DNA of 35,466 bases from Tabrizicola sp. TH137 (GTDB lineage: Bacteria > Pseudomonadota > Alphaproteobacteria > Rhodobacterales > Rhodobacteraceae), in NCBI RefSeq assembly GCF_002855575.1, contig NZ_PKRQ01000010.1, positions 1-35,466 on the forward strand. Reading direction: 5' to 3'. Below are positions 3,356-28,198 of the stretch, one piece after another. Below the pieces are notes generated by a model that was given only the letters and a program-made list of their open reading frames with translations, was not told where the DNA came from and did no database searches. Both the position numbers and the translations under genes were made by a program. The first letter of the stretch is position 1. Each line of letters opens with the position of its first letter.

Positions 3356-3380
3356 GGGGTGCTCCGAGGGATGAGGGGGA

Positions 3381-3761: not shown

Positions 3762-3815
3762 GGTTCAGTCTCCAGGATGATGGGGGATGGGGGCGCCCGA
3801 TCCGGGCGGTGCGCG

Positions 3816-4190
3816 TCAGCGCGAGGCGGCGGCCGACTTTTTCGCGGCCGCGACAATGGGGCTTTCCTTCGCGCCCGCCGCCGGTGCGGTGGCGATGATG
3901 CCCGCGGCATCGCTGCGGGCGGCAAGATCGGCCAGGACCCTGGCGCGCAGCGCCTCGGGCTTAACGCTCTTGGCGACCGCGTCTGCGGCGTCAATCTGGA
4001 TGCCGAGGCGCGCAGCTTGCGCGCAGACCTGTGCGACCTCGGCCGCCTCGGCGCGGACCGCTTCAAGCGCCAAGGCCGTGGCTTCCGACTGCGGCGGCGC
4101 GACTGCCGCGGGCGCGGCCGGTTCCGGCGGGGGGCTGGCGGCAGGCGCGGCAGCAGGCTGCGCATGATCTTCGGGGGCAGTGGTCATCAT
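3816..4190 (-). CDS. Nested capsid scaffold (lambda Nu3-like)
   Basis: This is an in-frame internal reading start within the protease gene. Two adjacent ATG codons (4190-4188 and 4187-4185) are preceded by AGAGGAAAGGG, a much stronger ribosome-binding site than chance would give in mid-gene. The product would be 124 residues: a low-complexity Ala/Pro linker, then amphipathic helices rich in Ala, Glu and Lys, as expected of an assembly scaffold. In lambda, gene C contains Nu3 in just this way. The protein would nucleate capsid assembly and be degraded. The internal start is inferred from sequence. Confidence 0.65.
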   Translation of the reverse strand: MMTTAPEDHAQPAAAPAASPPPEPAAPAAVAPPQSEATALALEAVRAEAAEVAQVCAQAARLGIQIDAADAVAKSVKPEALRARVLADLAARSDAAGIIATAPAAGAKESPIVAAAKKSAAASR

Positions 4191-6637: not shown

Positions 6638-6639
6638 GG

Positions 6640-6852
6640 TCAAAGACCCTTCGTCGCGACCGTGCCCCAGCGGCGACGACGCGGGGTGGCGGAGGCGGTG
6701 GCAATCCGTCCCTCCAAGTCCCGAATGGCTGCGGCCAGTTCGGCGTCCGAGCCATAGGTCACCGTCTTGCCTTCGTAGCTGACGCTGCGCAGCCCGGCGA
6801 AGCGTGCTTCCTGCAGCGCCGTGAGCAGGGCCTGCATGCGTTCCAGGTCCAT
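6640..6852 (-). CDS. Head-tail joining protein gpW
   Basis: A 70-residue protein closely matching the size and layout of lambda gpW (68 residues). It has an N-terminal helix (DLERMQALLTALQEARFAG), a beta hairpin (RSVSYEGKTVTYGS), a second helix (DAELAAAIRDLEGRIA) and a basic tail (PRRRRWG). gpW binds below the portal and closes the filled head before the tail attaches. Its ATG overlaps the TGA of the large terminase gene by one base, so it is coupled to packaging gene expression. Confidence 0.85.
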   Translation of the reverse strand: MDLERMQALLTALQEARFAGLRSVSYEGKTVTYGSDAELAAAIRDLEGRIATASATPRRRRWGTVATKGL

Positions 6853-12780: not shown

Positions 12781-14871
12781 TCAGTTGCCCTTGAGGAAGT
12801 CGTCGACGAACTCCGACACGGGAGTTACGCCGGTCACCAGCAGGTGATCCCTCGCCCTTGTGCAGGCAACATAGAGCAGGTGCCGTTCCGTGTTGTAGAC
12901 TTCCTCGAGGTCCGCGTCGTCAGCCACTGACTCGATCCGCTCTGATTGCGGGATCACTTCGTCGTCGCAGGCCATGACCACCACCGACCGGAACTCCAGC
13001 CCCTTCGCGAAGTGCATTGTACTGATGGCGACTGCCCCGTCCTCCACTTCGACCTTTTCACTCAATTCGACCGCGCGAACGCCCGCAGCTTTCGCGGCAG
13101 CACGCGCACGTTTCAGTTCCGCGTCAGACCTGACGAAAATACCAACCTCGCGCGGTGCGCAGCCCTCCTTCAGTCGATCCGTGATCCATCCTGCAACCGC
13201 GCGGCATTCGTGACCCTCATCGTTGCAGGCCAAGACCATCGGCGGAGGTCCGTCGAACATCGACACAGTGCCGCGCCGCCCTTCCGTGTTGCCATCCACA
13301 TCCGAAACGGTTGACGGCAGGAGTCGATCGGCATGTGTGCGGATCTGATGTGACGTGCGGTAATTGATGCGCAGGGTGAAAGAGCGGCCGCGGACATCAA
13401 GGCCAAGCGCCTTCCAGGAAAAGGGCTGTTGAAAGATGCGCTGGCCAAGATCTCCGGCGAAGAAGAGACCGTCGCTTCGCCCTGCTGCCATGGCGGCGAA
13501 GAACCGCGCCTCCGTCACACCCAGGTCCTGCGCCTCGTCGATCACGGCGAAGTCGTAAGGGCGTGCGCTGCCTTGGCCGAAACTGTCTGCCAGACGGCCG
13601 AAAACGTCCGACCATGTTACAACGCCGCGTTCCCTTAGCCCAGCACGGACGCGTTCAAAGATGGTCCAAAGGGCTTCGCGCTGTTTGCCGCCGATCCGAG
13701 TCTTCCTACCGAGCCGCGAGACGTCACGGTAATCTTCCCACGACCGAAGCTGCCAGGCGTCCACGACGTCGTTCCACTCTCCGATCAGGAACTGGGTCGA
13801 GAACCTGTGTCCTTCGACTTCAGCCGCTGCTTTCGCGATCAGCGACTTGACCAATGCAGCAGGTGCGATCTGCGGCTGCCCAAACCGCTCGGAATAAAGG
13901 TCATACCCAACTGCCGAGACCGCCTTCACGACAATCCGCGCCGAAACCAAGGGCTCATTGCCCACGAGGCTGGCCAACTTGCTGCGCAGGGCATTCGCCA
14001 GCGGCTTGGAGAACGTCGTCAGCAAGACCTTGGCAGAAGGATTGGCGCGGGCAAGATGGACCGCACGATGCAGCGCCACGATGGTTTTTCCTGTCCCGGC
14101 CGAACCCGAAACTCGGGTCGGACCGGAGAAGGATCGCTCGACAAGGTCAGCCTGGGCCGGATGCAGAAAGACCGCCCACTTGTCCCACGGATAGTCGAGC
14201 GCCTGCTTCAGTTCTTCTGCGTTGGCCAGAACGCGGAAGCGGCGCTGGGCGTCCGGGTGAGCAAAGGGATCGGCTTCGACCGGAGCAGGTTCGGGCGGTT
14301 GCGGTTTCTCGCCCACAGCCAGTTTCAGCAGAGCTTCCTGTGCCTCTTGGGGCAAGTGCTCGATGATGTCGAACAGCGTGTCCTCGGTGGCCGCCCGGAC
14401 GTCATTCACCCATTCCTCGGGCACGCCAAAGGCCATCAATTCGAACTTGCGCAGATTGTCGAACAGTCGGGCTGCGGGCGTGGTGGCAAGCGCGGGTGTT
14501 GCGGCCACCTCCTTGGCCTTGAAGATTTCCACCTCTTCGACCCGCTCGCGCACCTCGACCAACTGCATGGCGCCCGTCGTCGGGTGGCGCTCGATCTTCC
14601 GCCGTTCAGCCCATTTGTAGGCGTCGTCGTGGTGATCGACATAGACCAGCAAGATGCTGGCGGGGGTGCGATGTACGATGATTCGGATGTCAGCATTCAC
14701 CCGCACCGACCAGAAGTTCGAGTCCTTGGCGCGGTCCAGCTTGTGAAAGGACAGGCCCGGTGCCGAAGGGTTGATCTGAAGATCAAAGGCAGTCGTCTTA
14801 ACAGCTTTCTGCTCTTGAGCAGTCAAGCGGCCAAGGCTGCCTGTGAAGGTGTCGGCTATCCGGAAATTCAT
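12781..14871 (-). CDS. RelE-like domain fused to UvrD-like SF1 helicase
   Basis: A 696-residue fusion. Residues 1-95 look like a RelE/ParE-type toxin fold (TAQEQKAVKTTAFDLQINP; FHKLDRAKDSNFWSVRVNADIRIIVHR; YVDHHDDAYKWAERRKIE). From about 235 onward it is a superfamily 1 UvrD/Rep-like helicase: Walker A SGSAGTGKT near 255, Walker B VIDEAQD near 440, a motif IV-V region LRINYRTSHQIR and STMHFAKGLEFRSVVV, and motif VI LLYVACTRARDHLLVTG. It would be an ATP-driven DNA translocase. The ATG overlaps the GIY-YIG gene stop by 4 bases, making it the last gene of the restriction island. Whether the RelE-like part cuts RNA is unknown. Confidence 0.85.
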   Translation of the reverse strand: MNFRIADTFTGSLGRLTAQEQKAVKTTAFDLQINPSAPGLSFHKLDRAKDSNFWSVRVNADIRIIVHRTPASILLVYVDHHDDAYKWAERRKIERHPTTGAMQLVEVRERVEEVEIFKAKEVAATPALATTPAARLFDNLRKFELMAFGVPEEWVNDVRAATEDTLFDIIEHLPQEAQEALLKLAVGEKPQPPEPAPVEADPFAHPDAQRRFRVLANAEELKQALDYPWDKWAVFLHPAQADLVERSFSGPTRVSGSAGTGKTIVALHRAVHLARANPSAKVLLTTFSKPLANALRSKLASLVGNEPLVSARIVVKAVSAVGYDLYSERFGQPQIAPAALVKSLIAKAAAEVEGHRFSTQFLIGEWNDVVDAWQLRSWEDYRDVSRLGRKTRIGGKQREALWTIFERVRAGLRERGVVTWSDVFGRLADSFGQGSARPYDFAVIDEAQDLGVTEARFFAAMAAGRSDGLFFAGDLGQRIFQQPFSWKALGLDVRGRSFTLRINYRTSHQIRTHADRLLPSTVSDVDGNTEGRRGTVSMFDGPPPMVLACNDEGHECRAVAGWITDRLKEGCAPREVGIFVRSDAELKRARAAAKAAGVRAVELSEKVEVEDGAVAISTMHFAKGLEFRSVVVMACDDEVIPQSERIESVADDADLEEVYNTERHLLYVACTRARDHLLVTGVTPVSEFVDDFLKGN

Positions 14872-15359
14872 TGGTCCTCGTCGTCAATGCCGTCGTCGTC
14901 ATCGTCGACAAACTGAATATATCTTTCGACCTCTTCCCCAAATCGGCCTCGCTGAAGATTGAGAGGGGGTTCAGCCGATGCAATAAGAATTGCCTCTATA
15001 TGGTTGAGGATCTCGTTGATGGCTGGCGGCCTAACCGCAGCATTAAGGTCGAGTTGACCGCCAGCAACAGGAGAAGTGCCGAACCATGAAAATCGGCTCC
15101 ATCTCTGTGCAAGGTGATCGAATCTATGATTTCTTAGCCTCACCAAGAGCCTTTGGTTGCCTGCTCCTGTTTGGCCTATGTAGACGATCTTGAAGTTGTC
15201 GTCATAGAGGACGTAAATGCCTCGCTGCTGCCGAAAATCAACAGCAGCAGCGCCCCTTCGGCCAGTCCAGCCCAAAAGTTGTCCGCCATTACCACGGCCA
15301 CGACCGCCCCAGTCGACGTCGTCTCGGACCCAAAAGAGACCGTAGTTCCTGATCAGCAT
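14868..15359 (-). CDS. GIY-YIG nuclease
   Basis: A 163-residue protein with a GIY-YIG core near residue 50: RGIYVLYDDN, then KIVYIGQTG and the catalytic-arginine region LLVRLRNHRFDHLAQRW. A downstream glutamate in EAILIASAEPPLN fits the metal ligand. The C-terminus is very acidic (VDDDDDGIDDEDQ). I chose the ATG at 15359, four bases after the Mod stop, because GGAGTGAGGG precedes it. It sits between the Mod and helicase genes and overlaps the helicase start by ATGA, so it is an integral part of the operon. A second nuclease in addition to the Res subunit is unusual for a type III system. Confidence 0.85.
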   Translation of the reverse strand: MLIRNYGLFWVRDDVDWGGRGRGNGGQLLGWTGRRGAAAVDFRQQRGIYVLYDDNFKIVYIGQTGAGNQRLLVRLRNHRFDHLAQRWSRFSWFGTSPVAGGQLDLNAAVRPPAINEILNHIEAILIASAEPPLNLQRGRFGEEVERYIQFVDDDDDGIDDEDQ

Positions 15360-15363
15360 TCCC

Positions 15364-18267
15364 TCACTCCACCGCAAACACCTTCATCACCTCGTCCCCG
15401 AGGTGGTTGATCACCTTCACCGCGATCCGCCCCGACTTCGGCTTTGGGAACGGCCGCGATGTGTCGGAATACAGGCTCTCCCAGGCCTCCTCGTCGATCT
15501 CGGCCTTCAGCGTGGTCTTCAGCGCCTTGTAGGGGTCGTTGGCGCCGAGGAAATAGGCGTGGCGGACGAAGAAGGATTCCTCGTTGTAGTCGGTGTCCAG
15601 CATCCACAGGGCGATGCCGTCGGTGCCTTCGCTCTGCACCTCACCGGTCTGCGGCTTGAATACGTCCACGCCGAAGACCTGGACCTGCACCATGCCATCC
15701 CCCGCATCGGTGATCCGGATGTCCGGCTCACCGAAGATCACGAACAGGTTGCCCGCGCCGGTGGATTTCAGATCACCGCCCATGTGCAGGTCGGGGTTCA
15801 TCCGGGCCTTCAGCACGCGGATGCGGCCCAGCTTGTCGAACTCGCTGCTATGGGCGTCGTAGTTGAAGGCGCAGCAGATCAGCACGTCGAAACCGGCGTC
15901 GCCCGCCTCGCGCGCGGCGGCGACCAGATCGGGGCGGGAAACCGTGCCGAACTCCGGCCCGATGAACACGCCCGCGCGGCGCTGGGTGTCGCCTTCCATG
16001 AAGGTGCCCTCGGCTGCGATCCAGTTGCCGGGCCACCCCTTCAGGCTGGTGAAGGTGATCCGGTCCTCCTTGTGCGCCTGCTGCACGCCTGCGGCTTTCA
16101 GGTTTTCCAGGATCATGTGGGCGAAGTCGGTGAAGTCGCGCGGGGCCTCGGCCGCCTTGCGCTTGCCCTCGGCGGCCTCATAGGTGTCGATCAGCTCGTC
16201 ATCCCAATCGACGGCGAGGGTGCGGTGGGGCGACAGGCTTTCCACGGTGAAGGGACCTGCGACGCGGGTCTTGGTATTGTCGATGAAGGGCTTGTCGTAG
16301 AGGTATTCGAAATCCGCCTTGGCCGCGATGCTGGCGTCGATCTCGCGCTGGCGGGCGATGCGCGCCTCCCAGAACCGTTTCAGGGCGGCTTGCGCTGGGG
16401 CGGGCCAGCCTTGGGGGGCCTCGCGCGGGATTTCCCATTCCATGAAACCGTTTGCCGGGGCCATTTCGCCGGAGGGGAGCTTGACCTGCCCGCTCGCAGT
16501 GAAGTCGATCTTCGCGCCTGCGCGGCCGCCGGTTTCCACCTTGAAGGGGGTGGAATGGCCCGCAAGGGCGGCGTTCAGGGCTGTGATGGCGTCCTCGACG
16601 GCGGGCTGGAGCCGGTCCCAGATCACGTCGATCTCGGCGTTGTTGGCGATGGATTTCAGCGTGATGTGCGGCACGCGGTCATAGACGAAGCCCTGGCGGA
16701 TGCTGCCGTGGGTGGGGGTGGATTTGGGGACGGAGCGGGTGACCTCGGCCTCTTTCTGTTGGCCTTCGGGGCTGTCGGCCAGCAGGTAATAGGGATAGCG
16801 CGCGCCCATCAGGCGGGACCGGGCCAGGGCCACGGCGACACGAGAGGTGTCGATGGTGATCCAGCGCCGCCCCCATTGTTCGGCGACATAGGCCGTGGTG
16901 CCAGAGCCGCAGGTGGGATCGAGCACCAGATCGCCGGGGTCGGTGGTCATCAGGATGCAGCGTTCGATGACCTTTTGTGAGGTCTGCACGACATAGATCT
17001 TATCCTCGTTGAAGCCAGCGAATGCCGTGTCGCTCCAAAAGTTATTCCTGCGACGGGTGCTGCTGTCGTCGAAATACTTTACGAAGACCAAGGTATTCCC
17101 GATTACGTCCAGTCGGTTAGCTTTCCTGAGCTGCTCCATTCCTTCCGGAGTAGTGCCGAACCACCGTTTGTTCGGTCCAAAGAAACGGCCCTCCATGGGA
17201 AACTCGAATTTGCGACCCGGTCCCGGTTTTGTCAGGTTTTCGGGGCGGAAGAACCTCGCGCCTTCCGAGGTTGCCGTTTCGCGATCATTTTCTTTCTTGA
17301 TGAAGCTGTGTCGCGTTCCATCGGGAAGAACGAACTTCCGATATGAAGATGCTTCTTCTTCAATATCCAACTGGGTGAACAGCTCTCTATACTTCGATTT
17401 GACTGCATCTTTGGCGAACCAGAGGATGTAATCGAAGTTGGTTGCCAGCCTATCCTTTGAGGCAAGGCCTGAAGTTTTGCTGAAAGCGATTTGGCCTAAG
17501 ACGTTGTCTTCACCAAACACCTCATCCATCAGCGCCCGCACGCGGTGGACGTTCTCGTCGCCGATCTGCACGAAGATGCTGCCGGTCTCGCTCAGCAGAT
17601 CGCGCGCCACGGTCAGCCGGTCGCGCAGGTAGGTCAGGTAGGAATGGATGCCGTCCTTCCAGGTATCGCGAAAGGCGCGGACCTGTTCGGGTTCGCGCGT
17701 CACATGGGTCTTGTCGCCATCCTTCACATCGCGCGAGGTGGTAGACCACTGGAAGTTGGAGTTGAACTTGATGCCATAGGGCGGGTCGAAATAGATGCAC
17801 TGCACCTGCCCGCGCAGCCCCTCACGCTCGGCGAGGCTGGCCATCACCGACAGGCTGTCGCCCGAGATCATCCGGTTCGACCAGTGCTGATCGTGCTGGT
17901 AGAACTCGGTCGCGGCCTCGGCATCGGGCAGGCCGTTGAAATCGGCGAACATGTCGAACTGCGGGGCGTCCTTGGCCGCCTTGGCGCGGTTGGCGGATTC
18001 GCGTTTCAGATCGTCGATGATGACCTTGGGGTGGACCTTTTCCTGAATATACAGCGGCGGGGCCTGAACGATCAGGTCGGACCAGTCCTGCTCATCCTTG
18101 CCGCGCCAGACCAGCTGCGGGTCAAGGTCGCGGTTGCGACGTTCGTAGGCCAGCTGGATGGGCGTCTTGTCCTGATCGCGCATGAGGCTTTCGAACTCAG
18201 CCGTCGGGATGTTCTTGCGCGTGGCGTCGTGGGTGAGGGTTTCGACCTCGATGGGTTTCTTGGCCAT
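15364..18267 (-). CDS. Type III-like restriction-modification methyltransferase (Mod)
   Basis: A 967-residue beta-class N6-adenine methyltransferase: catalytic DPPYGIKFNSNFQ near residue 160, AdoMet-binding LVLDPTCGSGTTAYVAEQWG near 450, and a long target-recognition region between them (VGDENVHRVRALMDEVFGEDN; GQIAFSKTSGL). The C-terminal half (about 500-967) is longer than in classical Mod proteins such as EcoP15 and probably recognises DNA or binds Res. It methylates the recognition sequence and guides cleavage. The recognition-domain part (about 17000-17500) is visibly less GC-rich than the flanks, which suggests recombinational exchange of specificity. It is followed by the GIY-YIG gene 4 bases later. 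Confidence 0.9.
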   Translation of the reverse strand: MAKKPIEVETLTHDATRKNIPTAEFESLMRDQDKTPIQLAYERRNRDLDPQLVWRGKDEQDWSDLIVQAPPLYIQEKVHPKVIIDDLKRESANRAKAAKDAPQFDMFADFNGLPDAEAATEFYQHDQHWSNRMISGDSLSVMASLAEREGLRGQVQCIYFDPPYGIKFNSNFQWSTTSRDVKDGDKTHVTREPEQVRAFRDTWKDGIHSYLTYLRDRLTVARDLLSETGSIFVQIGDENVHRVRALMDEVFGEDNVLGQIAFSKTSGLASKDRLATNFDYILWFAKDAVKSKYRELFTQLDIEEEASSYRKFVLPDGTRHSFIKKENDRETATSEGARFFRPENLTKPGPGRKFEFPMEGRFFGPNKRWFGTTPEGMEQLRKANRLDVIGNTLVFVKYFDDSSTRRRNNFWSDTAFAGFNEDKIYVVQTSQKVIERCILMTTDPGDLVLDPTCGSGTTAYVAEQWGRRWITIDTSRVAVALARSRLMGARYPYYLLADSPEGQQKEAEVTRSVPKSTPTHGSIRQGFVYDRVPHITLKSIANNAEIDVIWDRLQPAVEDAITALNAALAGHSTPFKVETGGRAGAKIDFTASGQVKLPSGEMAPANGFMEWEIPREAPQGWPAPAQAALKRFWEARIARQREIDASIAAKADFEYLYDKPFIDNTKTRVAGPFTVESLSPHRTLAVDWDDELIDTYEAAEGKRKAAEAPRDFTDFAHMILENLKAAGVQQAHKEDRITFTSLKGWPGNWIAAEGTFMEGDTQRRAGVFIGPEFGTVSRPDLVAAAREAGDAGFDVLICCAFNYDAHSSEFDKLGRIRVLKARMNPDLHMGGDLKSTGAGNLFVIFGEPDIRITDAGDGMVQVQVFGVDVFKPQTGEVQSEGTDGIALWMLDTDYNEESFFVRHAYFLGANDPYKALKTTLKAEIDEEAWESLYSDTSRPFPKPKSGRIAVKVINHLGDEVMKVFAVE

Positions 18268-18270
18268 GGG

Positions 18271-18684
18271 TCAGCCCTTCTGTTCCGTGCCGGTCACCCG
18301 GCGAAAATGATTACCATCCTGCGTCAACCAAGGTGCAAGCCGCGCACTGCCAGCGTCAGTCAGCACAAACCAGCGGCGCTCGTCCTTCACCAAGCCACCG
18401 GCATGAAGCGAACGCATCACGGCCCGGTCAAGGTGAAGATATCCGTTGAAACAGAAGTAGATGCCCCGCATCGGAATGCGCGGACCGGCGAGTTCGACGT
18501 AGGCCGCAAGATACGCGATGTTGCGCGGGGTGTCAGGATTGTGCGCTGCCGGGGCCGCATACCACCAGGACAGCCTGTCAGCTTCGAGCCTTGGCCTTGT
18601 CTCGATCTTGCACGTCGAGGGAGGTTTCCCGTCGATACGTTCACACCAATACTTCAGTGTCGTCCAGGCGCGATGGTTGTTCAT
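18271..18684 (-). CDS. Hypothetical protein between Res and Mod
   Basis: A 137-residue protein with many aromatic residues (WTTLKYWCERIDG; ADRLSWWYAAPAA; RGIYFCFNGYLHLDR). The C-terminal segment AVMRSLHAGGLVKDERRWFVLTDAG has the look of a winged-helix DNA-binding unit. I do not recognise the family. The ATG overlaps the Res stop by 4 bases (ATGA) and its stop lies 3 bases before the Mod start, so it is translated as part of the restriction operon. A role as specificity or regulatory accessory is inferred from position only. Confidence 0.75.
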   Translation of the reverse strand: MNNHRAWTTLKYWCERIDGKPPSTCKIETRPRLEADRLSWWYAAPAAHNPDTPRNIAYLAAYVELAGPRIPMRGIYFCFNGYLHLDRAVMRSLHAGGLVKDERRWFVLTDAGSARLAPWLTQDGNHFRRVTGTEQKG

Positions 18685-21600
18685 TCGATCAAGGCCCCTT
18701 GCCGGGCCGGGCCCGCGCCGAGGGATTCGAGCAGTTTGTCGAACTCATCCTCCATCTCGTAGACCGCTGTGAATTCCGCGAATTCCCAGCGACCGAACTT
18801 GCCGAGGTTGTTGACGCCCGGCACCCAATAGGCGCGCATGGTGTTCGCCTTGTCCTTCGCATCCTCGCCGCGGTAGCCCTTGATCTCGACGATCAGGTTC
18901 AGCGGGTCGGGCTTGCCGTCGTCGACCTGGACGATGAAGTCGGGCAGGTATTTGCGCGGGGTGGAGCCGGAGAGGTAGGGCACCTCGAGGCCAAGCCCCT
19001 GGTTCTTGACGTAGGACAGAACGCGCGGGTGGCTTTCGGCGACGCGGGCGAACTCGGCCTCCCAATCGCTGTCGCAGACGACCCAGTTGACGTGGGACTT
19101 GTCGGGGCGGGTCTGCCAGCGCAGCGCCTTGGAAGTGGTGAAGTTGACGTAGGCGGTCGTGCCGGTGGGATTATAGGCGTCGAGGATCGCCTTGATCTGG
19201 TTCTCGCCCTTGAGGGATTCCGTGATGGCCGCCTTGATCCGCTCGGCCGCCATGTCGGCGATTTCCGGATAGAGAACCTGGCCCATGTGGGTTCCGCCTG
19301 TGCAACGCAGGTAGCCGCCATCTAGCCATTGGCGTGTGATGCGCTTCATCTGGCCGAAGAGGTGAAGTTTCGGGGCCTCGCCATGGTCGCGATACTTGTG
19401 AGTGATCAGGTGGCGTGCGAGGCGGAACATGATGGTGGAAGGGCGCAGGTCCTCCGGCTGCTCCAGGGTCAGGTCAACGCCTTCGCCGATGATCCCCTGG
19501 TTAGTGGTTGTGGAGGGGCCGAGAAGCTGCGGGGTCAGTTCCAGGATATGGTCAGGGCTGAAACTTGCCTCAAGCCGTTCATCCGGCAATTCGACCCGAT
19601 AGCCTTCGACACGGGGGAAGGTGATTTCCAGCGCGTCGCGATCAGGCTTAACGGCGTGGACGCGGACGGTTTCGCGCGGAGCCGCCGGGGGGGAGATTAC
19701 CGGTTTCGCGGTGAAGTCGAATGGAATGCCCAGGACATCGGCATATTCGACGTTGAAGAGCCCCTCGTCGTTCAGTTCATAGGATTGGCGGCGCAGCGCG
19801 CGGCCGATCACCTGTTCGCACAAGAGCTGCGTGCCGAAGGCGCGGACGCCAAGAACGTGGGTGACGGTGTTCGCGTCCCACCCTTCGGTCAGCATGGAGA
19901 CCGAGACTACACAGCGGATCTGTTCCCCGAGGCGACCCTTCTTGCCGACGGTGTTCATGACCTCGCGCAGCAGGGTGGATTCGTCGATCTTGTCGCCAGC
20001 CGTGATGTCGCCCGTCCGCTCGACCATCTCGCGCTTGAACTGCTCGATTTCGACAGCCGCCATTTCGCGGAAATCCTTGTCGAGCGCCTCGCCGGACTCG
20101 AGCTGAGCGCTATCGATCAAGATTGTGTTCGGCCGCGGCATGCGGTTGCCGAAGTCGTCGTAATTCCGGAACAGGGCAAGGCGGCCATTCTCAAGGGTGG
20201 TCTCGGTGCCGTCGTCGCTGACCCGATCAAAACCCGAGATGTATTTGTAGATCAGTTCTGAAGTCGCCGTGTTGTTGCAGACGACGATGAACACCGGCGG
20301 TACGCCGATCCCCTTGTCCTGCCAAAGCTGGAAGGTCTTTTCGTAATGACCGTAGAGGGCTTCCAATGCGGTCAGCAGCTCGACCGGCAGGCTGAACGGA
20401 TCAAGCGCCTTGCCTGCCGCACGTCCCTTTTTGGGGAGCTTCTTGCCGATGTGGTCCCAGAGATTGCGGAACTTTGGCGTATCGCCGCCCGGCACGTTGT
20501 CTGCAATCGGCACGCGCGGCAACTTTACGATCCCGCATTCGATGGCGTCCATCAGCGAGAAGTCGGACATCGTCCAGGGAAACAGCGTGCCTTCGATGTA
20601 TCCTGAGCCTCGAAGGAAGAACGGTGTGGCCGACAGGTCGTAGACGAGGCTGATGCCAAGCTTCCGCTTGACCGCTTCAAGGCCGGATATCCACATGCGG
20701 GCGGCCTCGTTGTTCTCCTTGGCCTCGCTTTTTTCGTCGCCCTTCAAGTCGTCTTCGGTTTCGCCAACGGCATCCTTTACCCGCTCGCGATAGCAGTGAT
20801 GCGCCTCATCGTTCAGAACGACGATGTTCTTCTGGCCCATCAGGTCACCCATGACCCTTTGGATCATCTCGCCCTCGGTCTCCAGCGTCTGGACTTTTTC
20901 GCCGCGCCAGCCCTCCAGTGCCTGCCTGGTGCCTTTGGCGATCACCAGTTTTTCGCGCAGCTTGAATGCGTGATAGTTTGTGATCACGATTTTGGCTGCC
21001 TGGATGTCGCGCAGCATGTCGGGCGGCGTGATCTCGCGCGAACGATAGTAGCTTTCAGGGTCGTTCGGCAGCAGGACGCGCAAACGGTCCCGGATCGTGA
21101 TGCCAGGCGAGACGATCAGGAACCGGCTGGAGAACTGCTTGCTGTTCGGGTGTCGCACGGCGTTAACCGTCTGCCACGCGATCAGCATCGCCATGACGGT
21201 GGTCTTGCCCGCCCCGGTCGCGAGCTTCAACGCAAGGCGCATCAGTTCGGGATTGGCCTGCTCATTGGCTCCCTTGATGTGCGCCCAGAACTTGGCGACG
21301 CGCGGCCCCATCTTCGGCGCGACCTCGGTCAACCAGATCGCGGTTTCGACGGCTTCGATCTGGCAGAAGAAGGGGCGGACGCCCTCGAACTTGTGGTGTC
21401 GCCAATGTTGCAGCAGTCGGGCTGTTTCCGGTGTCACGAGCCACTGGTCAGGGTTCGGAAGATTGCGCCACGTTTCGACATATCCCCGAACCTCGTTGAT
21501 GATCGGGGTGGGGTTGTACTCCTGATCTGCGGTCGAAAGATCGTCATCGGCACCGAGCAGCAGAGCGCCCTGCTTCTGGCTTTGCCGTTGCTTTTTCGTT

Positions 21601-21746
21601 TTGGGGACCGGCGTAATCAGGTCTGAGCGGCGCCTGGTCTCGATGATGCGGTTCGTCGGCTGACCGTCAGTGTCTAGTTCCCAATGGCGGCCGGGGTATT
21701 CGTAGGGGGAATTCAGGATCGGCTTTTCGAAGAACTGTTCAGACAT
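18681..21746 (-). CDS. Type III-like restriction endonuclease (Res), helicase-nuclease
   Basis: A 1021-residue SF2 helicase with a C-terminal nuclease, of the BPTD_3080-like type III group. The motor has Walker A LATGAGKTTVMAMLIAW near residue 178, the DEAH box VVLNDEAHHCYRERV near 310, SATPFFLRGSGY (motif III) and motif VI QVIGRALRRQSYE. The nuclease is PD-(D/E)xK: LPDFIVQVDDGK near 937 and LIVEIKGYRGED near 953. It would cut DNA lacking Mod methylation after ATP-dependent translocation or signalling. The ATG overlaps the upstream HTH gene by 8 bases and has AAGGA at good spacing. Confidence 0.9.
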   Translation of the reverse strand: MSEQFFEKPILNSPYEYPGRHWELDTDGQPTNRIIETRRRSDLITPVPKTKKQRQSQKQGALLLGADDDLSTADQEYNPTPIINEVRGYVETWRNLPNPDQWLVTPETARLLQHWRHHKFEGVRPFFCQIEAVETAIWLTEVAPKMGPRVAKFWAHIKGANEQANPELMRLALKLATGAGKTTVMAMLIAWQTVNAVRHPNSKQFSSRFLIVSPGITIRDRLRVLLPNDPESYYRSREITPPDMLRDIQAAKIVITNYHAFKLREKLVIAKGTRQALEGWRGEKVQTLETEGEMIQRVMGDLMGQKNIVVLNDEAHHCYRERVKDAVGETEDDLKGDEKSEAKENNEAARMWISGLEAVKRKLGISLVYDLSATPFFLRGSGYIEGTLFPWTMSDFSLMDAIECGIVKLPRVPIADNVPGGDTPKFRNLWDHIGKKLPKKGRAAGKALDPFSLPVELLTALEALYGHYEKTFQLWQDKGIGVPPVFIVVCNNTATSELIYKYISGFDRVSDDGTETTLENGRLALFRNYDDFGNRMPRPNTILIDSAQLESGEALDKDFREMAAVEIEQFKREMVERTGDITAGDKIDESTLLREVMNTVGKKGRLGEQIRCVVSVSMLTEGWDANTVTHVLGVRAFGTQLLCEQVIGRALRRQSYELNDEGLFNVEYADVLGIPFDFTAKPVISPPAAPRETVRVHAVKPDRDALEITFPRVEGYRVELPDERLEASFSPDHILELTPQLLGPSTTTNQGIIGEGVDLTLEQPEDLRPSTIMFRLARHLITHKYRDHGEAPKLHLFGQMKRITRQWLDGGYLRCTGGTHMGQVLYPEIADMAAERIKAAITESLKGENQIKAILDAYNPTGTTAYVNFTTSKALRWQTRPDKSHVNWVVCDSDWEAEFARVAESHPRVLSYVKNQGLGLEVPYLSGSTPRKYLPDFIVQVDDGKPDPLNLIVEIKGYRGEDAKDKANTMRAYWVPGVNNLGKFGRWEFAEFTAVYEMEDEFDKLLESLGAGPARQGALIE

Positions 21747-21948
21747 TGGGGGAGTCCTTTGCAGCGTTCCCCTTCACCACCGCCTTCTGTTCGTCGATCC
21801 ACTGATCAATATCGTCGTGCTTGAACCGCCATTGGCCTCGAACCTTGAACGCCGGGATCTGGCCTGTTTGCGCCATCGTGTAGACAGTCTTCTCTGCAAC
21901 CTTCAACAAAATGGCGACCTCTGGCAAAGTGAGAATGGGGTCCGTCAT
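21739..21948 (-). CDS. Excisionase-type helix-turn-helix protein heading the RM operon
   Basis: A 69-residue MerR/excisionase-like HTH (TLPEVAILLKVAEKTVYTMAQTG; IPAFKVRGQWRFKHDDIDQWIDEQ), the form common in AlpA and Xis regulators. It is the first gene of the six-gene restriction operon and overlaps Res by 8 bases. GAGAGGGAGC lies just upstream of the ATG. It is well placed to act as transcriptional controller of the restriction genes, analogous to C-proteins, but this is inference. The 120 bases upstream (21949-22068) are relatively AT-rich and must hold the operon promoter; I cannot fix its boxes. Confidence 0.8.
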   Translation of the reverse strand: MTDPILTLPEVAILLKVAEKTVYTMAQTGQIPAFKVRGQWRFKHDDIDQWIDEQKAVVKGNAAKDSPNV

Positions 21949-22068: not shown

Positions 22069-22731
22069 TTACCTCAGCCACGGCCGCGCCTTCGGCATCG
22101 CCACCGTCACCTCGACCTCGCGTAGCATCCCGCCCGCGATAAGTCCCTCGCGGACCCAGCCCAGCGCTTGCCACCAGTCGTCATAGCCGCGACGGGCAGC
22201 GTCGATCTGCTGCGGGTGGGGAGAGAAGGTGACGGGGCAGGCCAGGATATCGACGGTCTTCCACGTGGCGCGCGCGCCCGGGCCGCGCACGCAGACGCGC
22301 TCGGTACCTACGACGATGGCGCCCGCGTGCGTGCCGTGCTGGTTCTGCTTGACGATGGTCGGCACGCAGCGCGGGACGGCGCCGGGCATCCAGTCCGGGG
22401 TCAGCCCGGCGCGGGCCAGTTCGGCGACGCGGATCGCCATGCGCTTGCCGCCGAGGCTGTCGGGGATCCCGGCAACGGTGGCCGCGATAACCTCGGCGTC
22501 TTCGTGGGTGTAGCCGCCGATCTTGTGCTGGCCGCCGTCGATCTTGCAGCCCAAAGCGGCGCGTTGGAGGAGGACATATTCGAGGCCGAAGCCAAAGCCC
22601 TCCTCGGTGACGTCCTTGGGAAGGGGCAGTTCCAGCTGCGCCTGCTCGATCCGGAACGCCCATTCCAGCGCCGCTTGCACGCCCAGCGCGCGCTTGATCC
22701 TGGTGCCGCTGACGCGGCCGTGGAAACTCAT
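22069..22731 (-). CDS. Hypothetical phage protein, last gene of replication operon
   Basis: A 220-residue protein that I do not recognise. Visible features are an N-terminal helical region (RIKRALGVQAALEWAFRIEQAQLELPLP), a central Gly-rich stretch (EEGFGFGLEYVLLQRAALGCKIDGGQ) and a strand-rich C-terminal half with HAGAIVVGTERVCVRG and VDILACPVTFSPHPQQIDAAR. The host-like third-position GC bias marks it as a long-resident phage gene. Its ATG overlaps by 4 bases the stop of the second-frame methyltransferase reading (22728), which supports that frame as the authentic gene end. It is probably a conserved early-region protein of Rhodobacterales phages. Confidence 0.7.
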   Translation of the reverse strand: MSFHGRVSGTRIKRALGVQAALEWAFRIEQAQLELPLPKDVTEEGFGFGLEYVLLQRAALGCKIDGGQHKIGGYTHEDAEVIAATVAGIPDSLGGKRMAIRVAELARAGLTPDWMPGAVPRCVPTIVKQNQHGTHAGAIVVGTERVCVRGPGARATWKTVDILACPVTFSPHPQQIDAARRGYDDWWQALGWVREGLIAGGMLREVEVTVAMPKARPWLR

Positions 22732-23300
22732 GACTGCAATCCTTCAAGGAAATCCATCTGCGCCGGGCGCTGGGCCTGGTCCGTCGGCCGCCAGATCCAC
22801 GGGCCGGAGGCCATGGGCAGCTGCGAGAGAGCGCCACGCATGTGCTGCTGCCAAAGGGTGAACTCCGTTGCCGAGCACGCGCAAAGCGCGTGCCCGATGG
22901 GCCAGCCCATCAGCCATCCGACGAAGAGCGGGTTCAGCCGCCGCCGCGCCCGGCCCTTCAGGATCCGCCGCGAGACGGCGCGCCCATGCGAGGCAATCAT
23001 CGAAGCCCAGAGCGGGCGCGAGATCGGGGCGTGCGGCAAGGATCGCGGCCCATCGGGCGAGGTCGCCGGGGCCGGGGGGGTGAAGCCCTGCTCCGCCCGG
23101 TAGTGCAGCAGATCCATCCGGGATTTGCCGTCGCTGCGGGTGACGCTGGCCTCCGAACTGCCCTTCCAGTTCTGTGCTGCCGGGGTCGGCCAATGGTTCG
23201 GCAGGGCCTTCGCGATGCCCAGCGCCAGCGCTTCCGCCTTCCTCGTGAAGTCGCTGTTCCCGGCCGGGTTGTAGCGGCCGGTGCCGGGATGCAGGCTCAT
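22728..23300 (-). CDS. Second-frame C-terminal half of the cytosine methyltransferase
   Basis: This frame (one base ahead of the first) has strong third-position GC bias from about 23300 down to 22728. It reads as a target-recognition and C-terminal region typical of phage C5 methyltransferases: NHWPTPAAQNWKGSSEA, SDGKSRMDLLHYRAEQGF, and LNPLFVGWLMGWPIGH. Its TGA overlaps the ATG of the next gene by 4 bases, as do all other junctions of this operon. It has no ribosome-binding site at 23300, so it is unlikely to be an independent gene. Either a single-base frameshift split one methyltransferase gene, or the ribosome changes frame near codon 173. Confidence 0.6.
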   Translation of the reverse strand: MSLHPGTGRYNPAGNSDFTRKAEALALGIAKALPNHWPTPAAQNWKGSSEASVTRSDGKSRMDLLHYRAEQGFTPPAPATSPDGPRSLPHAPISRPLWASMIASHGRAVSRRILKGRARRRLNPLFVGWLMGWPIGHALCACSATEFTLWQQHMRGALSQLPMASGPWIWRPTDQAQRPAQMDFLEGLQS

Positions 23301-23820
23301 TGGTGTGGGCCAGGATGAAGATGCGCAGCCGCTCATGCGGCGCGCCGACCTCTGCCGCCGAGAACAGGCCCGCCGCAGGCGAATAGCCCAATCCCCAAAG
23401 CTCTCGCAGGACGGTTTCAAGGCCGAGAGTGACGTGACCGGCGACGTTTTCGAGGAAGACCCATTCGGGGCGGAGCTCAAAGATGACGCGGGCGACATCA
23501 GGCCAGAGATGGCGGGGATCGTCGGCGCCGCCGCGCTTCCCGGCCGCGCTGAAAGGCTGGCAGGGATAGCCTGCGAGGACGGCATCGAAGGCGCCGTGGA
23601 AGGGAAGGGCGTCGAACGTCCGCAGGTCGGTCCAGATCGGGGCCGGGGCGAAGTATCCCGCGCGCTGGGCGGCGATGAGGACCGCCCTTGGCCAGTCCTC
23701 CCATTCGACGAAGGCGCGGGTGTGATAGCCGGGTTCGGCGAGCATGAGGCCCAGATCAAGGCCTCCGCCGCCTGCGCAGAGGGAGAGTCCGTGCCGGGGA
23801 CGAAGCACCATGCCATTCAC
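22744..23820 (-). CDS. C5-cytosine DNA methyltransferase, first frame
   Basis: The N-terminal half is a clear C5 methyltransferase: motif I LSLCAGGGGLDLGL (12-25), catalytic GYPCQPFSAAG (Cys87), ENV in VFLENVAGHV (124-126), and motif VIII VGAPHERLRIFILAH (158-172). This frame also ends with a motif X-like RVLGNGVHPLAAAHAW. Between residues about 175 and 300, however, it loses the host codon pattern while the frame one base ahead gains it. The start is a GTG whose GTGA overlaps the upstream stop; an ATG at 23811 is the alternative. As an orphan phage methyltransferase it would protect phage DNA. See the second-frame entry: the true product is probably a composite or the gene has a frameshift. 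Confidence 0.7.
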   Translation of the reverse strand: MNGMVLRPRHGLSLCAGGGGLDLGLMLAEPGYHTRAFVEWEDWPRAVLIAAQRAGYFAPAPIWTDLRTFDALPFHGAFDAVLAGYPCQPFSAAGKRGGADDPRHLWPDVARVIFELRPEWVFLENVAGHVTLGLETVLRELWGLGYSPAAGLFSAAEVGAPHERLRIFILAHTNEPASRHRPLQPGREQRLHEEGGSAGAGHREGPAEPLADPGSTELEGQFGGQRHPQRRQIPDGSAALPGGAGLHPPGPGDLARWAAILAARPDLAPALGFDDCLAWARRLAADPEGPGAAAAEPALRRMADGLAHRARALRVLGNGVHPLAAAHAWRSLAAAHGLRPVDLAADGPGPAPGADGFP

Positions 23821-24824
23821 CGCACCCCGCGCTCGCGCAGGCGTTCGACTGTCACCAGCCCCCGGGCCAGCATGGCATCGCGCATGGTGTTGCTGATCGC
23901 GCTGACCGGCAGGTAGCGGTCGGAGTTGACCAGATCGGCGTAGAAGGCGGGCAGGTCCGTGATCGGCTTCGTAGCCGGGGCGGGGGCTGCCTTGGGCTTC
24001 CGGCGCTTCCGCCCGGCATCCTCGACCTTGCGCTGGGCTGCGCGCTGCATCGCCCGGTCCAGCGCCTTCGGCCCGTCTGGCGGTTCGGGATGCTCATCGC
24101 GGGATGCCTCGGCTGCAGCGATGATCTCCGCCTCGGTCAGTCCCAGTTCGTCGCGCCAGCGCTGAACGTGCAGCCGGGGCGGCCAGCCTTGCCACCAGCC
24201 GGGCAGCGCGCCCGGGTCGAGGCCCAGCGCATCAAGCAGGTCCCTGAAAACCGCATCAGAAATCGCCGCGCGCGCCTGCGCACCCTCCTCCTCCTTTACT
24301 GGTTTACTTAGAGGTTCCCTTACAGGGTTAGTGTCCGAAATCCGGACACGGCTTTCGGCTTTTTCCGGACACGGCTCGTCCGAAAAATCGGACACGGCTC
24401 TCGCGTCGTTCCCGTGTCCGAAATCCGGACACGGCAAGGCATCGGCCATGCCGTCATCGTCACAAACATCGGTACTGTCGCGGCTTTCTACGCCCTGATC
24501 CTGTCCGTGTCCGATTTCTGGACACGGTACCACCGCTACAGGTGTGAAGCCCGGCTCGAACCCCAGGATGTAGCGGGTCGGCAGCTGTCGCTTAGTCGCG
24601 GGGTCAAGCCGCGGCACCCGCCGCAATAGGCCCACCGCCTCCAGCTGTCCAAGGTGGTCGTTCAGCGTGGACCGGCTGATCTCGCAGTCATGCGCCAGCC
24701 GGTCCTGCGAGGGGAAGCAGCCGTAATCCGGGTTGAACCGGTCGCAGAGGTGCCAGAGCACGATCTTGGTCGTCGGCTTCAGCCCGCGCTGCTTGATGGC
24801 CCAGTTGGTGGCCTCGTGGCTCAT
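23817..24824 (-). CDS. Phage replication initiator, O-like helix-turn-helix protein
   Basis: A 335-residue protein. Residues 1-100 form a winged HTH of the HTH_36 type (KPTTKIVLWHLCDRFNPDYG; QDRLAHDCEISRSTLNDHL; LEAVGLLRRVPRL). The middle is a Cys-Pro-rich, low-complexity linker with CPEIGHG, CPDFGHG and EPCPEKAE, encoded by DNA dyad repeats. The C-terminal part is basic and helical (AMQRAAQRKVEDAGRKRRKPK) and ends with a second folded region. Layout and embedded repeats match lambda gpO-type initiators, which bind iterons within their own gene. It is coupled to the VRR-NUC gene upstream and the methyltransferase downstream by 4-base overlaps. Confidence 0.75.
   Translation of the reverse strand: MSHEATNWAIKQRGLKPTTKIVLWHLCDRFNPDYGCFPSQDRLAHDCEISRSTLNDHLGQLEAVGLLRRVPRLDPATKRQLPTRYILGFEPGFTPVAVVPCPEIGHGQDQGVESRDSTDVCDDDGMADALPCPDFGHGNDARAVSDFSDEPCPEKAESRVRISDTNPVREPLSKPVKEEEGAQARAAISDAVFRDLLDALGLDPGALPGWWQGWPPRLHVQRWRDELGLTEAEIIAAAEASRDEHPEPPDGPKALDRAMQRAAQRKVEDAGRKRRKPKAAPAPATKPITDLPAFYADLVNSDRYLPVSAISNTMRDAMLARGLVTVERLRERGVR
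24331..24527 (+). repeat. Five dyad iterons inside the O-like gene (probable replication origin)
   Basis: Five related units lie in 197 bases: 24331-24352, 24364-24375 (right half only), 24378-24398, 24411-24435 and 24505-24527. The full unit is CCGTGTCCG, a 5-base AT-rich centre, then CGGACACGG, an inverted repeat of 9 bases. The right arm GGACAC followed by GG is invariant. A less GC-rich stretch (24287-24330, with TTTACT and TTACTTAG) adjoins the left side, as an unwinding element would. The position within the initiator gene mirrors lambda ori in gene O. Confidence 0.7.
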
Positions 24825-25216
24825 GGCGCGGGCCTCCGCGGGGCAGGGGCGATGCGCGTGGTGAACCCGTGATCGGCCAGCGCGCCCAGCGCATCGTCGA
24901 GACTGCGCACCAGCGCCCAGCCGAACCCTTGCGCCAGAACGGCATCACGGAATGCCTCCTGTTCCGGCCGCAGGCGCCCCTTCGGCGCCTTCAACTCGAG
25001 GAACAGGACGCGGCCGTCGCTCAGGACCATCAGGTCCGCGAACCCGGCATGGACGCCCATGCCGACAAGGATCGCTTGGCGCTTGGCCCCGCGGGACCCG
25101 GCCTCGGTCACCTCGTTGGCGCAGTGATGGATGATGGCGGTGCGGGGCAGGGCGATGCGCAGCGCCTGCACGACGGCGCGCTGCAGATCGGCTTCGGGGG
25201 TGCCACGGCGCATCAT
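24821..25216 (-). CDS. VRR-NUC domain nuclease
   Basis: A 131-residue PD-(D/E)xK nuclease of the VRR-NUC type: TPEADLQRAVVQALRIALP at the N-terminus, HHCANEVTEAGSRGAKRQA, then GVHAGFADLMVLSDGRVLFLELKAPKGRLRPEQ, carrying the acidic metal ligand (D of FADLM) and ELK. In phage early regions such proteins serve as Holliday-junction or flap nucleases during replication and recombination. ATGA overlaps link it to the genes on either side. The first ATG at 25216 overlaps the upstream stop and is the better choice of the two adjacent ATGs. Confidence 0.88.
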   Translation of the reverse strand: MMRRGTPEADLQRAVVQALRIALPRTAIIHHCANEVTEAGSRGAKRQAILVGMGVHAGFADLMVLSDGRVLFLELKAPKGRLRPEQEAFRDAVLAQGFGWALVRSLDDALGALADHGFTTRIAPAPRRPAP

Positions 25217-26926: not shown

Positions 26927-28198
26927 TCAGGCCGATTTCGGCAGGTCAACCCCGTCCTGCGCCGCGTCATGCACAAGGCGCGGCCGCGGGCGCAGGAGGC
27001 TGGCCACCGTGTCTACGCCTGCACGTAGCGGCGAATCCATCAGGTGCGCATAGCGCTGGGTGGTCTGCATCTGGCTGTGGCCTAAGAGCTTGCCGATCAT
27101 TTCCAGCGACGCGCCGCCGCTGACCAAGAGCGAGGCAAAGGTGTGGCGCAGGTCATGGATGCGGACGTCGGCCAGCCCGGCGTCCTTCTGTGCCTTGGCC
27201 CAGAAGCGGCGGATTTCCCGCACGGGCTGGCCGACAGTGTCGCCGGGGAACAGCCACGGGTTCCCGCGTGGCACCGCCTGCTGGCGCAGCCGCACGATGG
27301 CCGCGACGTCCTGCGAGATCGGCACGCGGTGGATCTTGCGCTGCTTGGTGGTCGAAGCGGGCTTCGACCAGATGGCATAGTCGAGGTTGAACTGTTCGAA
27401 CCGCGCTGTTCGGACCTCGCCCACCCGGGCGCCGGTCAGCATGCACATGCGGATGATCGCCGCAGCGCGTTGATCCTCGGCGGCATCCAGCACGGCCGCC
27501 AGCCGGGTCAGTTCTTCCGGTGACAGGAACCGTTCGCGGGCGTGTTCGATGCGCCGATAAAACCCCTGCGCGGGGTTGTCCGTCCGCCATTCCCATTCCA
27601 TCGCCAGCGTGAACATCTTGCGCAGCACCTCGCCCATGCGGTTGGCGCGGATCGGGGTGGGCTTGTGACCCTGCAGCTTGCGGGCCCGGTTGTTGGGCTT
27701 TGCCTTGCAGGGACGTGGCCGCCCCTCGGCCACGAAATCGAGGAACTTCGCGACGTCGGACTTGGTGATCTCCGTCACCAGCCGGTTCCCCCAGGCCGGT
27801 TCGACCATCTTCTTCAGCATCGAGACCTGATCGCCCGCATTGGTCTTGGCCAGTTTCGGCAGATGCTCGGCGATGTAGCGGTCGATCATGTCCGTGACGC
27901 GCGGGGCCCCGCGCCACTCGTCGCGCGCCGCCAGAGGATCCTGCCCCTCGTCAATGGCGCGGCGCAGTTCCTTGGCGCGTTCGCGCGCGGCCGTGACGCT
28001 CCATTCAGGCCAGCGCCCGATGGTCATCCGCCGCTGCCGACCGGCATGCCGGTAGTCGATGGTGAAGGTCCGCGCGCCCGAGGCCTGCACCCGGGCGGCG
28101 AAGCCGATCACCTCTGTGTCGAAGATCTGATAGCTGACGCCGGGCTTGGGTTCCGCCTCGCGCAGGGTTTTCTCATTCAGTTTCAGTCGTTTGACCAT
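26927..28198 (-). CDS. int: Tyrosine-type site-specific integrase
   Basis: A 423-residue tyrosine recombinase. Residues 1-100 form an arm-binding DUF4102-type domain (LNEKTLREAEPKPGVSYQIFD; RHAGRQRRMTIGRWPEWSV). A core-binding domain occupies about 105-220. The catalytic domain shows Arg in TGARVGEVR (about 254), Lys in STTKQRKIHR (about 285), HDLRHTFASLL (about 343-353), GHSQMQTTQRYAH with His and the nucleophile Tyr (about 381). All key residues are present. AAGGAGG lies 8 bases before the ATG at 28198. It integrates the prophage, probably at the tRNA-Met gene whose fragment lies 4.7 kb to the right. Confidence 0.93.
   Translation of the reverse strand: MVKRLKLNEKTLREAEPKPGVSYQIFDTEVIGFAARVQASGARTFTIDYRHAGRQRRMTIGRWPEWSVTAARERAKELRRAIDEGQDPLAARDEWRGAPRVTDMIDRYIAEHLPKLAKTNAGDQVSMLKKMVEPAWGNRLVTEITKSDVAKFLDFVAEGRPRPCKAKPNNRARKLQGHKPTPIRANRMGEVLRKMFTLAMEWEWRTDNPAQGFYRRIEHARERFLSPEELTRLAAVLDAAEDQRAAAIIRMCMLTGARVGEVRTARFEQFNLDYAIWSKPASTTKQRKIHRVPISQDVAAIVRLRQQAVPRGNPWLFPGDTVGQPVREIRRFWAKAQKDAGLADVRIHDLRHTFASLLVSGGASLEMIGKLLGHSQMQTTQRYAHLMDSPLRAGVDTVASLLRPRPRLVHDAAQDGVDLPKSA

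What the first reader, a model, noticed from the sequence alone, without database searches (positions are those of the whole stretch)
12781..21948. Six-gene restriction island with extra GIY-YIG nuclease and RelE-helicase fusion
Six leftward genes overlap or lie within 4 bases of each other: HTH regulator, Res (DEAH helicase plus PD-ExK), unknown protein, Mod, GIY-YIG nuclease and a RelE-like/UvrD-like helicase. Classical type III systems need only Mod and Res. Tight coupling of three additional proteins, two with nucleolytic or translocase potential, suggests a composite defence system in which restriction may be backed by a second attack mechanism. I know of no named system with exactly this gene set.
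Basis: partly seen in the sequence, partly recalled or inferred. Interest (0 to 1): 0.8.

Follow-up and report, generated by a model that had tools for sequence, protein, structure and literature searches.

The report
Phage-borne restriction operon with swappable cargo
A bacterial prophage carries a DNA-restriction operon whose cutter, methylase and a toxin-like helicase are found together in many bacterial groups, while the genes between them change from strain to strain, so the operon looks like a chassis for exchangeable anti-phage modules.

Summary
The six leftward genes exist as described. They are of two kinds. Core: a BPTD_3080-family Res, a type III-like Mod, and a UvrD-type helicase with a RelE/HigB-like N-terminus. 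Of 385 alphaproteobacterial genomes, 12 have helicase and Res, always linked; about 1 expected. The order Res-Mod-helicase holds in 62 of 64 three-gene loci, from eight groups by record title. Helicase and Res distances correlate (Mantel r 0.87). Cargo: the 137-aa and GIY-YIG genes occupy two hypervariable slots; relatives with 95-97% identical Res and helicase carry other genes there. Across loci the slots include GmrSD, NYN, SIR2+HerA and IetAS-like proteins; 174 slot ORFs make 107 families, and 30 of 32 recurring ones keep to one slot. The Mod recognition domain is a third swap point. The operon lies in a prophage conserved in Rhodobacterales. The helicase resembles ArmD of ARMADA type II, in another setting. 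Ten paper searches found no description.

The parts
21739..21948 (-). HTH_17 / excisionase-family regulator, 69 aa; scores above the NCBIfam MAD1 cut-off
   Evidence: relatives directly upstream of Res in 9 of 64 Res loci at E<1e-17 plus one weak (L103, 2e-4), window included
18681..21746 (-). Res: SF2 helicase plus PD-ExK nuclease, 1021 aa, BPTD_3080 family
   Evidence: G-G-K-T of Walker A, D-E and H-H of DEAHH, SATPF, P935-D936, E954 and K956 in 51 of 51 aligned loci
18269..18680 (-). Cargo slot X (between Res and Mod)
   Evidence: nucleotide alignment to L057, L072, L060 and L061 stops near the 3' end of Res and resumes at the 5' end of Mod
18271..18684 (-). Slot X cargo in this genome: 137-aa protein, no family
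   Evidence: relatives only in the same slot
15364..18267 (-). Mod: beta-class-like N6/N4 methyltransferase, 967 aa
   Evidence: DPPYG in 51 of 51; 'beta-class' recalled from motif order
17000..17510 (-). Target-recognition domain inside Mod (about residues 250-425), third swap point
   Evidence: unaligned at DNA level against relatives; identity to five relatives falls to 10-62% per 50 aa there, mostly above 70% elsewhere
14870..15362 (-). Cargo slot Y (between Mod and helicase)
   Evidence: alignment break in L057, L072, L058, L060, L061, L073 but not L065
14868..15359 (-). Slot Y cargo in this genome: GIY-YIG nuclease, 163 aa from the ATG (169 aa from the TTG at 15377)
12781..14871 (-). RelE/HigB-like domain (about residues 1-92) fused to UvrD-type SF1 helicase, 696 aa, ArmD-like
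   Evidence: R63, H80, H81, Y85, K262, D445, E446 in 51 of 51
26927..28198 (-). Tyrosine integrase of the host prophage
   Evidence: PF00589 3.6e-24
22069..25216 (-). Prophage genes on the integrase side (phrog_9306, phrog_27243, HTH_36, VRR_NUC-like)
   Evidence: collinear up to about 24100-24980, where the fetched loci end, in L057, L060, L061 and L073
2330..8906 (-). Prophage head genes: major head protein, S49 protease, portal, large terminase
   Evidence: collinear, as far as the fetched loci reach, in L057, L060, L061, L062, L065 and partly L073
11105..12367 (-). N6/N4 methylase (PADLOC type II MTase) between the operon and the head genes
   Evidence: collinear in relatives

Best explanation
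A prophage-carried, type III-like restriction-modification operon with a RelE-UvrD (ArmD-like) helicase as third core component and two exchangeable cargo slots. Proposed working: Mod, whose recognition domain is swapped freely, methylates resident DNA; Res, guided by Mod, translocates on unmethylated incoming DNA and cuts it with its PD-ExK domain; the helicase then works on cut or stalled DNA, with its RelE-like domain adding RNase or nucleic-acid-binding activity. Slots X and Y hold additional effectors (here the 137-aa protein and a GIY-YIG nuclease) expressed with the core, acting on phages that survive or block restriction. The HTH gene probably regulates the operon. Shown here: gene content, motif conservation, linkage, correlated divergence of the three core genes, slot and recognition-domain swapping, prophage location. 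Inferred: every biochemical step, co-transcription, and that cargo cooperates with the core.
For: Linkage: 12 of 385 genomes (own genome included) have both helicase (18) and Res (22) at E<=1e-60, all 12 within 9 kb on one contig; hypergeometric p 6e-13, ignoring kinship between genomes. Order: Res-Mod-helicase on one strand in 62 of 64 three-gene loci, the two others being Tistrella loci with Mod-Res convergent to the helicase; 83 helicase loci have Mod upstream on the same strand (counts include the window). Correlated divergence over 51 loci: helicase-Res r 0.872, helicase-Mod core 0.850, Res-Mod core 0.905, helicase-recognition domain 0.023; also within 31 alphaproteobacterial loci (helicase-Res 0.890) and 20 others (0.712). 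Catalytic residues kept in 51 of 51. Slots (gap of 250 nt or more): X filled in 42 of 62, Y in 67 of 83; of the 62, 36 both, 6 X only, 16 Y only, 4 neither. 174 slot ORFs of at least 90 aa, 107 families; 30 of 32 families seen in two or more loci keep to one slot (shuffle mean 14, 0 of 5000 reach 30). Cargo matching defence families: GmrSD_N 5 of 48 X members; IetA 7, IetS 5, HerA 3, SIR2 3 of 126 Y members. ArmD precedent: deletion of any ARMADA II gene, or ArmD Walker A K266A, abolished protection, while ArmD D454N lost it only partly (PMC12458937, passages); the E. coli plasmid relative L011 has K266 and D454.
Against: 13 Res loci have no helicase match; several are cut by contig ends, broken or distant, but L153 and L157 are not, so Res/Mod can occur without it. 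Three helicases at 51-62% identity (L006, L105, L129) have 7.7-10 kb of upstream sequence and no Mod match. The RelE-like call is weak by profile (best PDB RelE match E 0.053), and a profile comparison with one annotated RelE/ParE protein failed. Of ten slot proteins from closer relatives scanned singly only two (both NYN) reached a Pfam cut-off. The slot-purity and Mantel tests do not remove shared descent. No expression or activity data.
Confidence: 0.55

Rival explanations
1. The restriction core works alone; the slots are insertion-tolerant gaps where unrelated defence genes hitch-hike for shared transcription and mobility, with no functional tie to restriction.
For: Extreme diversity, 74 singleton families of 107; recognisable stand-alone systems such as SIR2+HerA and AAA+subtilase inside slot Y (that these work alone is recalled); 4 of 62 loci have both slots empty; the GIY-YIG family also occurs away from Res/Mod.
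Against: Families keep to one slot (30 of 32), which a neutral landing site would not predict unless it is shared descent; the slots stay between the same genes in distant lineages.
Confidence: 0.35
2. The helicase too is merely the most persistent cargo, at the 3' end, and Res plus Mod is the whole restriction system.
For: Res/Mod loci without the helicase, for example L153 and L157; the same helicase type serves ARMADA II.
Against: Its distance matrix tracks Res almost as well as Mod does (0.872 vs 0.905), unlike the recognition domain (Res-recognition domain 0.063); its place after Mod is kept in 62 of 64 three-gene loci; it stays linked even where the order is rearranged (Tistrella).
Confidence: 0.25
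3. The operon mainly serves the prophage: superinfection exclusion and stabilisation (loss of Mod kills the cured cell), with cargo as further stabilising or toxin-like modules.
For: Collinear prophage in three named Rhodobacterales genera and two unnamed bins; 23 viral-contig hits with the helicase, two of them records already seen; tail proteins present in a relative.
Against: The same operon also sits on plasmids and in many loci whose surroundings I did not check for phage genes; not exclusive of the best explanation.
Confidence: 0.2

Closest known systems
Type III restriction-modification (EcoP15I, EcoPI)
   Same: Two-gene core of Mod with an internal recognition domain and Res with SF2 helicase plus PD-ExK; Mod matches solved type III Mod chains 6k0w (1.4e-18) and 4zcf EcoP15I (1e-12)
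   Different: Res comes first (mod-res order of classical systems recalled); Res has no PDB sequence match at E<=0.01 and only weak PADLOC type III scores (6e-6); Mod is 967 aa against 618 and 644 aa for those two chains; a recurrent third helicase gene and two cargo slots
ARMADA type II, ArmD (PMC12458937, passages read)
   Same: [quoted passage not shown] P0001 is 32% identical to the ArmD-like protein of L011
   Different: ARMADA has ArmA (BrxHII-like), ArmB (PglX-like) and ArmC (YprA-like) partners; none is found among the six genes here
Gabija (GajB)
   Same: UvrD-type helicase; PADLOC GajB models match (best 9e-24; the top PADLOC model is a NERD+UvrD one, 2e-26)
   Different: No OLD-family GajA partner (GajA as OLD nuclease recalled and in the listing); extra RelE-like domain
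Campylobacter type I hsd loci with rlo/mlo intervening ORFs; PrrC in EcoprrI
   Same: Variable accessory genes between restriction subunit genes; PrrC is activated when its host restriction enzyme is inhibited (PMC5183652 and PMC12707154, passages; Miller 2005 seen only as cited)
   Different: Type I machinery; here a type III-like core, a recurrent third helicase, and slot-specific families in many bacterial groups
MADS (methylation-associated defence system)
   Same: The HTH protein passes the NCBIfam MAD1 cut-off
   Different: No other MADS component among the displayed hits for the six genes

Membership tests
Type III restriction-modification | Mod: N6/N4 methylase with recognition domain between motif IV (DPPY) and motif I | tested here: met
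   PF01555; DPPYG at 161 in 51 of 51; in DPTCGSGTT at 450 the G-S-G is in 51 of 51, the last T in 46; hypervariable stretch between them; motif order recalled
Type III restriction-modification | Res: SF2 helicase fused to PD-ExK nuclease | tested here: met
   Residues; PF04851 above cut-off, RE_endonuc below it (20.7 vs 23.4)
Type III restriction-modification | Res recognisably homologous to characterised type III Res | tested here: inconclusive
   PADLOC REase_III 6e-6; no PDB chain at E<=0.01
Type III restriction-modification | Asymmetric site, one-strand methylation, need for two inverted sites and ATP | not testable with these tools
   Needs methylome and biochemical data
ARMADA type II | ArmD-like RelE-UvrD helicase | tested here: met
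   RelE part weak by profile
ARMADA type II | ArmA, ArmB and ArmC partners | tested here: not met
   Partners are Res (NF046055) and type III-like Mod; no BrxHII, PglX or YprA call among displayed hits for the six genes (PADLOC lists cut at 25)
Gabija | GajA OLD-family nuclease next to GajB | tested here: not met
   No such call among displayed hits for the six genes
MADS | Full mad gene set | tested here: not met
   Only the HTH gene matches, among displayed hits (PADLOC lists cut at 25)
RelE/HigB toxin superfamily (helicase N-terminus) | Sequence profile match and conserved C-terminal Arg/His/Tyr residues | tested here: inconclusive
   23 of 25 listed for PF05015 at E<=1, best 4e-5, window copy below the curated cut-off; R63, H81, Y85 invariant; PDB RelE3 only at 0.053; comparison with one annotated RelE/ParE protein failed; fold not modelled
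GIY-YIG nucleases | GIY, YIG, Arg, Glu and Asn motifs in order | tested here: met
   Pfam score below cut-off; motif set recalled

The most novel reading that the evidence does not exclude
A widespread modular immune platform not yet described in the papers I could search: a type III-like Res/Mod plus ArmD-like RelE-UvrD core acts as a chassis whose two slot-specific bays accept whole defence modules by recombination in the conserved flanking genes, with the cargo triggered by, or guarding, the restriction core, and with temperate phages as one of its carriers.
Probability: 0.33. Interest if true: 0.82.

Novelty: new variant of a known kind. Interest (0 to 1): 0.62.

Why it matters
It joins two separately known ideas, restriction loci that host accessory genes and the RelE-UvrD helicase of ARMADA, in one recurrent operon. 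By record title all three core genes are found in alpha-, gamma- and deltaproteobacteria, planctomycetes, acidobacteria, Nitrospirota, a Dehalococcoidia bin and a Clostridiales bin; Mod plus helicase also in Nitrospinota, Latescibacterota and Verrucomicrobia bins cut off by locus or contig ends or without a Res match. The fixed slots could serve as a trap for new anti-phage genes: 74 of 107 families seen there occurred once in my set. Pairs with near-identical Res and helicase and different cargo are natural experiments for asking whether restriction and backup effectors are coupled.

Tried and rejected
Six-gene fixed system: rejected, because cargo changes between loci whose Res and helicase are 95-97% identical (L057, L072, and L058 by its helicase alone). 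Cargo as a specificity factor exchanged with the Mod recognition domain: not supported; 29 same-X-family pairs have mean recognition-domain distance 0.67 against 0.685 for all pairs, and L060/L061 share X, Res (distance 0.01) and helicase (0.02) but differ by 0.69 in the recognition domain. Membership in MADS, Gabija or ARMADA: rejected on missing partners. Phage satellite: not favoured, since the prophage of the Palleronia relative continues with a tape-measure match and a 1322-aa protein matching a gene-transfer-agent tail protein (6tba), and ORFs of like size (808-815 and 1322-1345 aa) follow in two other relatives; those two were judged by size only. In free phage genomes: no Res match in the phage collection, helicase only partial at 26-28%. 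RelE by profile against one annotated RelE/ParE protein: no meaningful match. Paper searches without a matching system; the passages of PMC2292703 describe MORC-associated restriction operons, not this one, and the passages of PMC3702460 and PMC5512222 were of no help.

Rows left out before counting, and limits: L001 and L014-L056 (short stretches, regions mostly fetched again as L137-L163; L016 is the same contig as L098); L170 and L171 are the same records as L065 and L057, and L170-L192 were not added to the 83/64/62/51 counts; L068 was dropped from A7 for an internal stop; ORFs under 90 aa were left out of family counts; slot ORFs come from a simple longest-ORF script, so some may not be genes. 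All 51 loci entering the Mantel tests had the three core genes at 85% coverage or more, out of 64 three-gene loci. Alpha and other groups were assigned by me from record titles; many records are metagenome bins and may be misassigned (for example L068, titled Exiguobacterium, and L120, titled Klebsiella).


Full report
Observation. Family searches name four of them firmly: HTH_17 (above the MAD1 cut-off), Res (NF046055, 1361 bits), Mod (PADLOC MTase_III, 1260 bits) and a UvrD-type helicase. The GIY-YIG assignment rests on motifs and a sub-threshold Pfam match; its likely start is the ATG at 15359, because the 96%-identical Paracoccus lutimaris copy has a stop upstream of it. The 137-aa protein matches nothing in Pfam, PADLOC or NCBIfam at E<=0.001. 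The RelE-like N-terminus of the helicase is supported by weak HigB-like matches (23 of 25 sequences at E<=1, best 4e-5) and by invariant R63, H81 and Y85, but its fold could not be modelled.

Setting. The operon is inside a prophage: integrase at 26927-28198, further phage-type genes at 22069-25216, head genes at 2330-8906. As far as the fetched loci reach, prophage genes outside the operon are collinear, at about 73-92% nucleotide identity, in Tabrizicola (L057), Palleronia (L060), Paracoccus (L061, L065) and two Rhodobacteraceae bins (L062, L073). In the Palleronia relative the genes beyond the window include a tape-measure match and a 1322-aa protein matching a gene-transfer-agent tail protein, so this looks like a tailed prophage rather than a satellite. 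A scan of viral contigs found 23 with the helicase, two of them records already held; the annotated phage collection had no Res match.

The core. Helicase and Res were searched in the same 385 alphaproteobacterial genomes, own genome included. The helicase matched in 18 at E<=1e-60 (one of them at 32% identity, one partial), Res in 22 (two of them at 35-36%); 12 have both, on one contig within 9 kb, where about one would be expected. The scan of genome contigs with a helicase alignment kept the best 80 of at least 549 relatives, so it is not a census. Over the loci counted, 83 helicase genes have Mod upstream on the same strand and 62 of these also have Res, in the order Res-Mod-helicase; two further three-gene loci, both Tistrella, have Mod-Res convergent with the helicase. 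Of 20 helicase loci without a counted Mod, 16 have less than 5 kb of upstream sequence; L006, L105, L129 and the distant Thermus L012 have more. 13 Res loci have no helicase match. Distances of helicase, Res and the Mod core correlate strongly in 51 loci and within two subsets, while the recognition domain is uncorrelated. Key catalytic residues of all three proteins are kept in all 51.

The slots. Between near-identical cores, DNA alignment breaks at three places: between Res and Mod, inside Mod at the recognition domain, and between Mod and helicase. The window's nearest relatives by Res and helicase (95-97% identical) carry other genes there: L057 a 279-aa NYN protein in X and nothing in Y; L072 a NYN protein in X and a 95-aa ORF in Y; L058 (helicase only comparable) a 280-aa protein in Y. 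L065 has a 38%-identical relative of the 137-aa protein in X and a 96%-identical GIY-YIG in Y. Of 62 three-gene loci 36 have both slots filled, 6 only X, 16 only Y and 4 neither. The 174 slot ORFs of at least 90 aa make 107 families, 74 seen once; 30 of 32 recurring families keep to one slot against 14 expected from label shuffling, though shared descent contributes. Pfam and PADLOC matches include GmrSD, NYN, HATPase and PD-ExK proteins in X, and AAA+subtilase (IetAS), SIR2+HerA, SNF2, KAP, TIR and Schlafen proteins in Y (for the Y Pfam scan and both PADLOC scans only the 25 commonest families are shown). Against this, of ten slot proteins from closer relatives scanned singly only two reached a Pfam cut-off. 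I ran no matched control on flanking genes, so I claim that the cargo includes defence modules, not a measured enrichment.

Comparison. The restriction pair is type III-like: Mod matches solved type III Mod proteins and Res has the right parts, but Res has no solved relative by sequence at E<=0.01 and comes first in the operon. The helicase is ArmD-like. In ARMADA type II, ArmD has the same domain plan; [quoted passage not shown] Residue numbers indicate that the E. coli plasmid relative L011 is such an ArmD next to an ArmC. Accessory genes inside restriction loci have precedents in type I systems: PrrC (PMC12707154, passages) and Campylobacter rlo/mlo ORFs (PMC5183652, passages). I found no paper describing this combination in ten searches; most subscription papers are not held.

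Reading. The best-supported account is a restriction core of three genes with exchangeable recognition and exchangeable backup cargo. The correlated divergence of the three core genes and the swapping of the rest are shown; what the helicase does after cleavage, what the RelE-like domain cuts or binds, and whether cargo is triggered by the state of restriction are inferences. The strongest rival is that slot genes hitch-hike. I rate it a new variant of a known kind.

Noticed in passing
window 28542-32670 (+): A 262-aa protein with no family, overlapping a 1122-aa helicase matching PADLOC HamB (1.3e-32): a possible Hachiman-like pair just beyond the integrase end of the prophage.
   Followed up: no
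window 34370-35398 (-): Mu-type transposase C-terminal domain (PF22483).
   Followed up: no
window 12000-12331: Part of the phage methylase gene matches twice in L057, L062, L065 and L073, suggesting a duplicated methylase segment in relatives.
   Followed up: no
L060 and L061: Palleronia and Paracoccus operons with Res 99% and helicase 98% identical and the same slot X family, but a Mod recognition domain 69% different.
   Followed up: partly
L105:10001-15193: A 62%-identical helicase without a Mod or Res match within the 10 kb held upstream, followed by a 1027-aa RapA/SNF2-like protein: the helicase type may serve further systems.
   Followed up: partly
L006:5787-17757: On a Qipengyuania plasmid the helicase (51%) sits next to a 1900-aa DUF4011 protein and near a RecB-like nuclease, without Res/Mod.
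   Followed up: no
L153:8415-8921 and L193:8001-8486: GIY-YIG relatives after Mod where the helicase is absent, and on a Methylorubrum megaplasmid without a match to any of the operon's other genes within 8 kb.
   Followed up: partly
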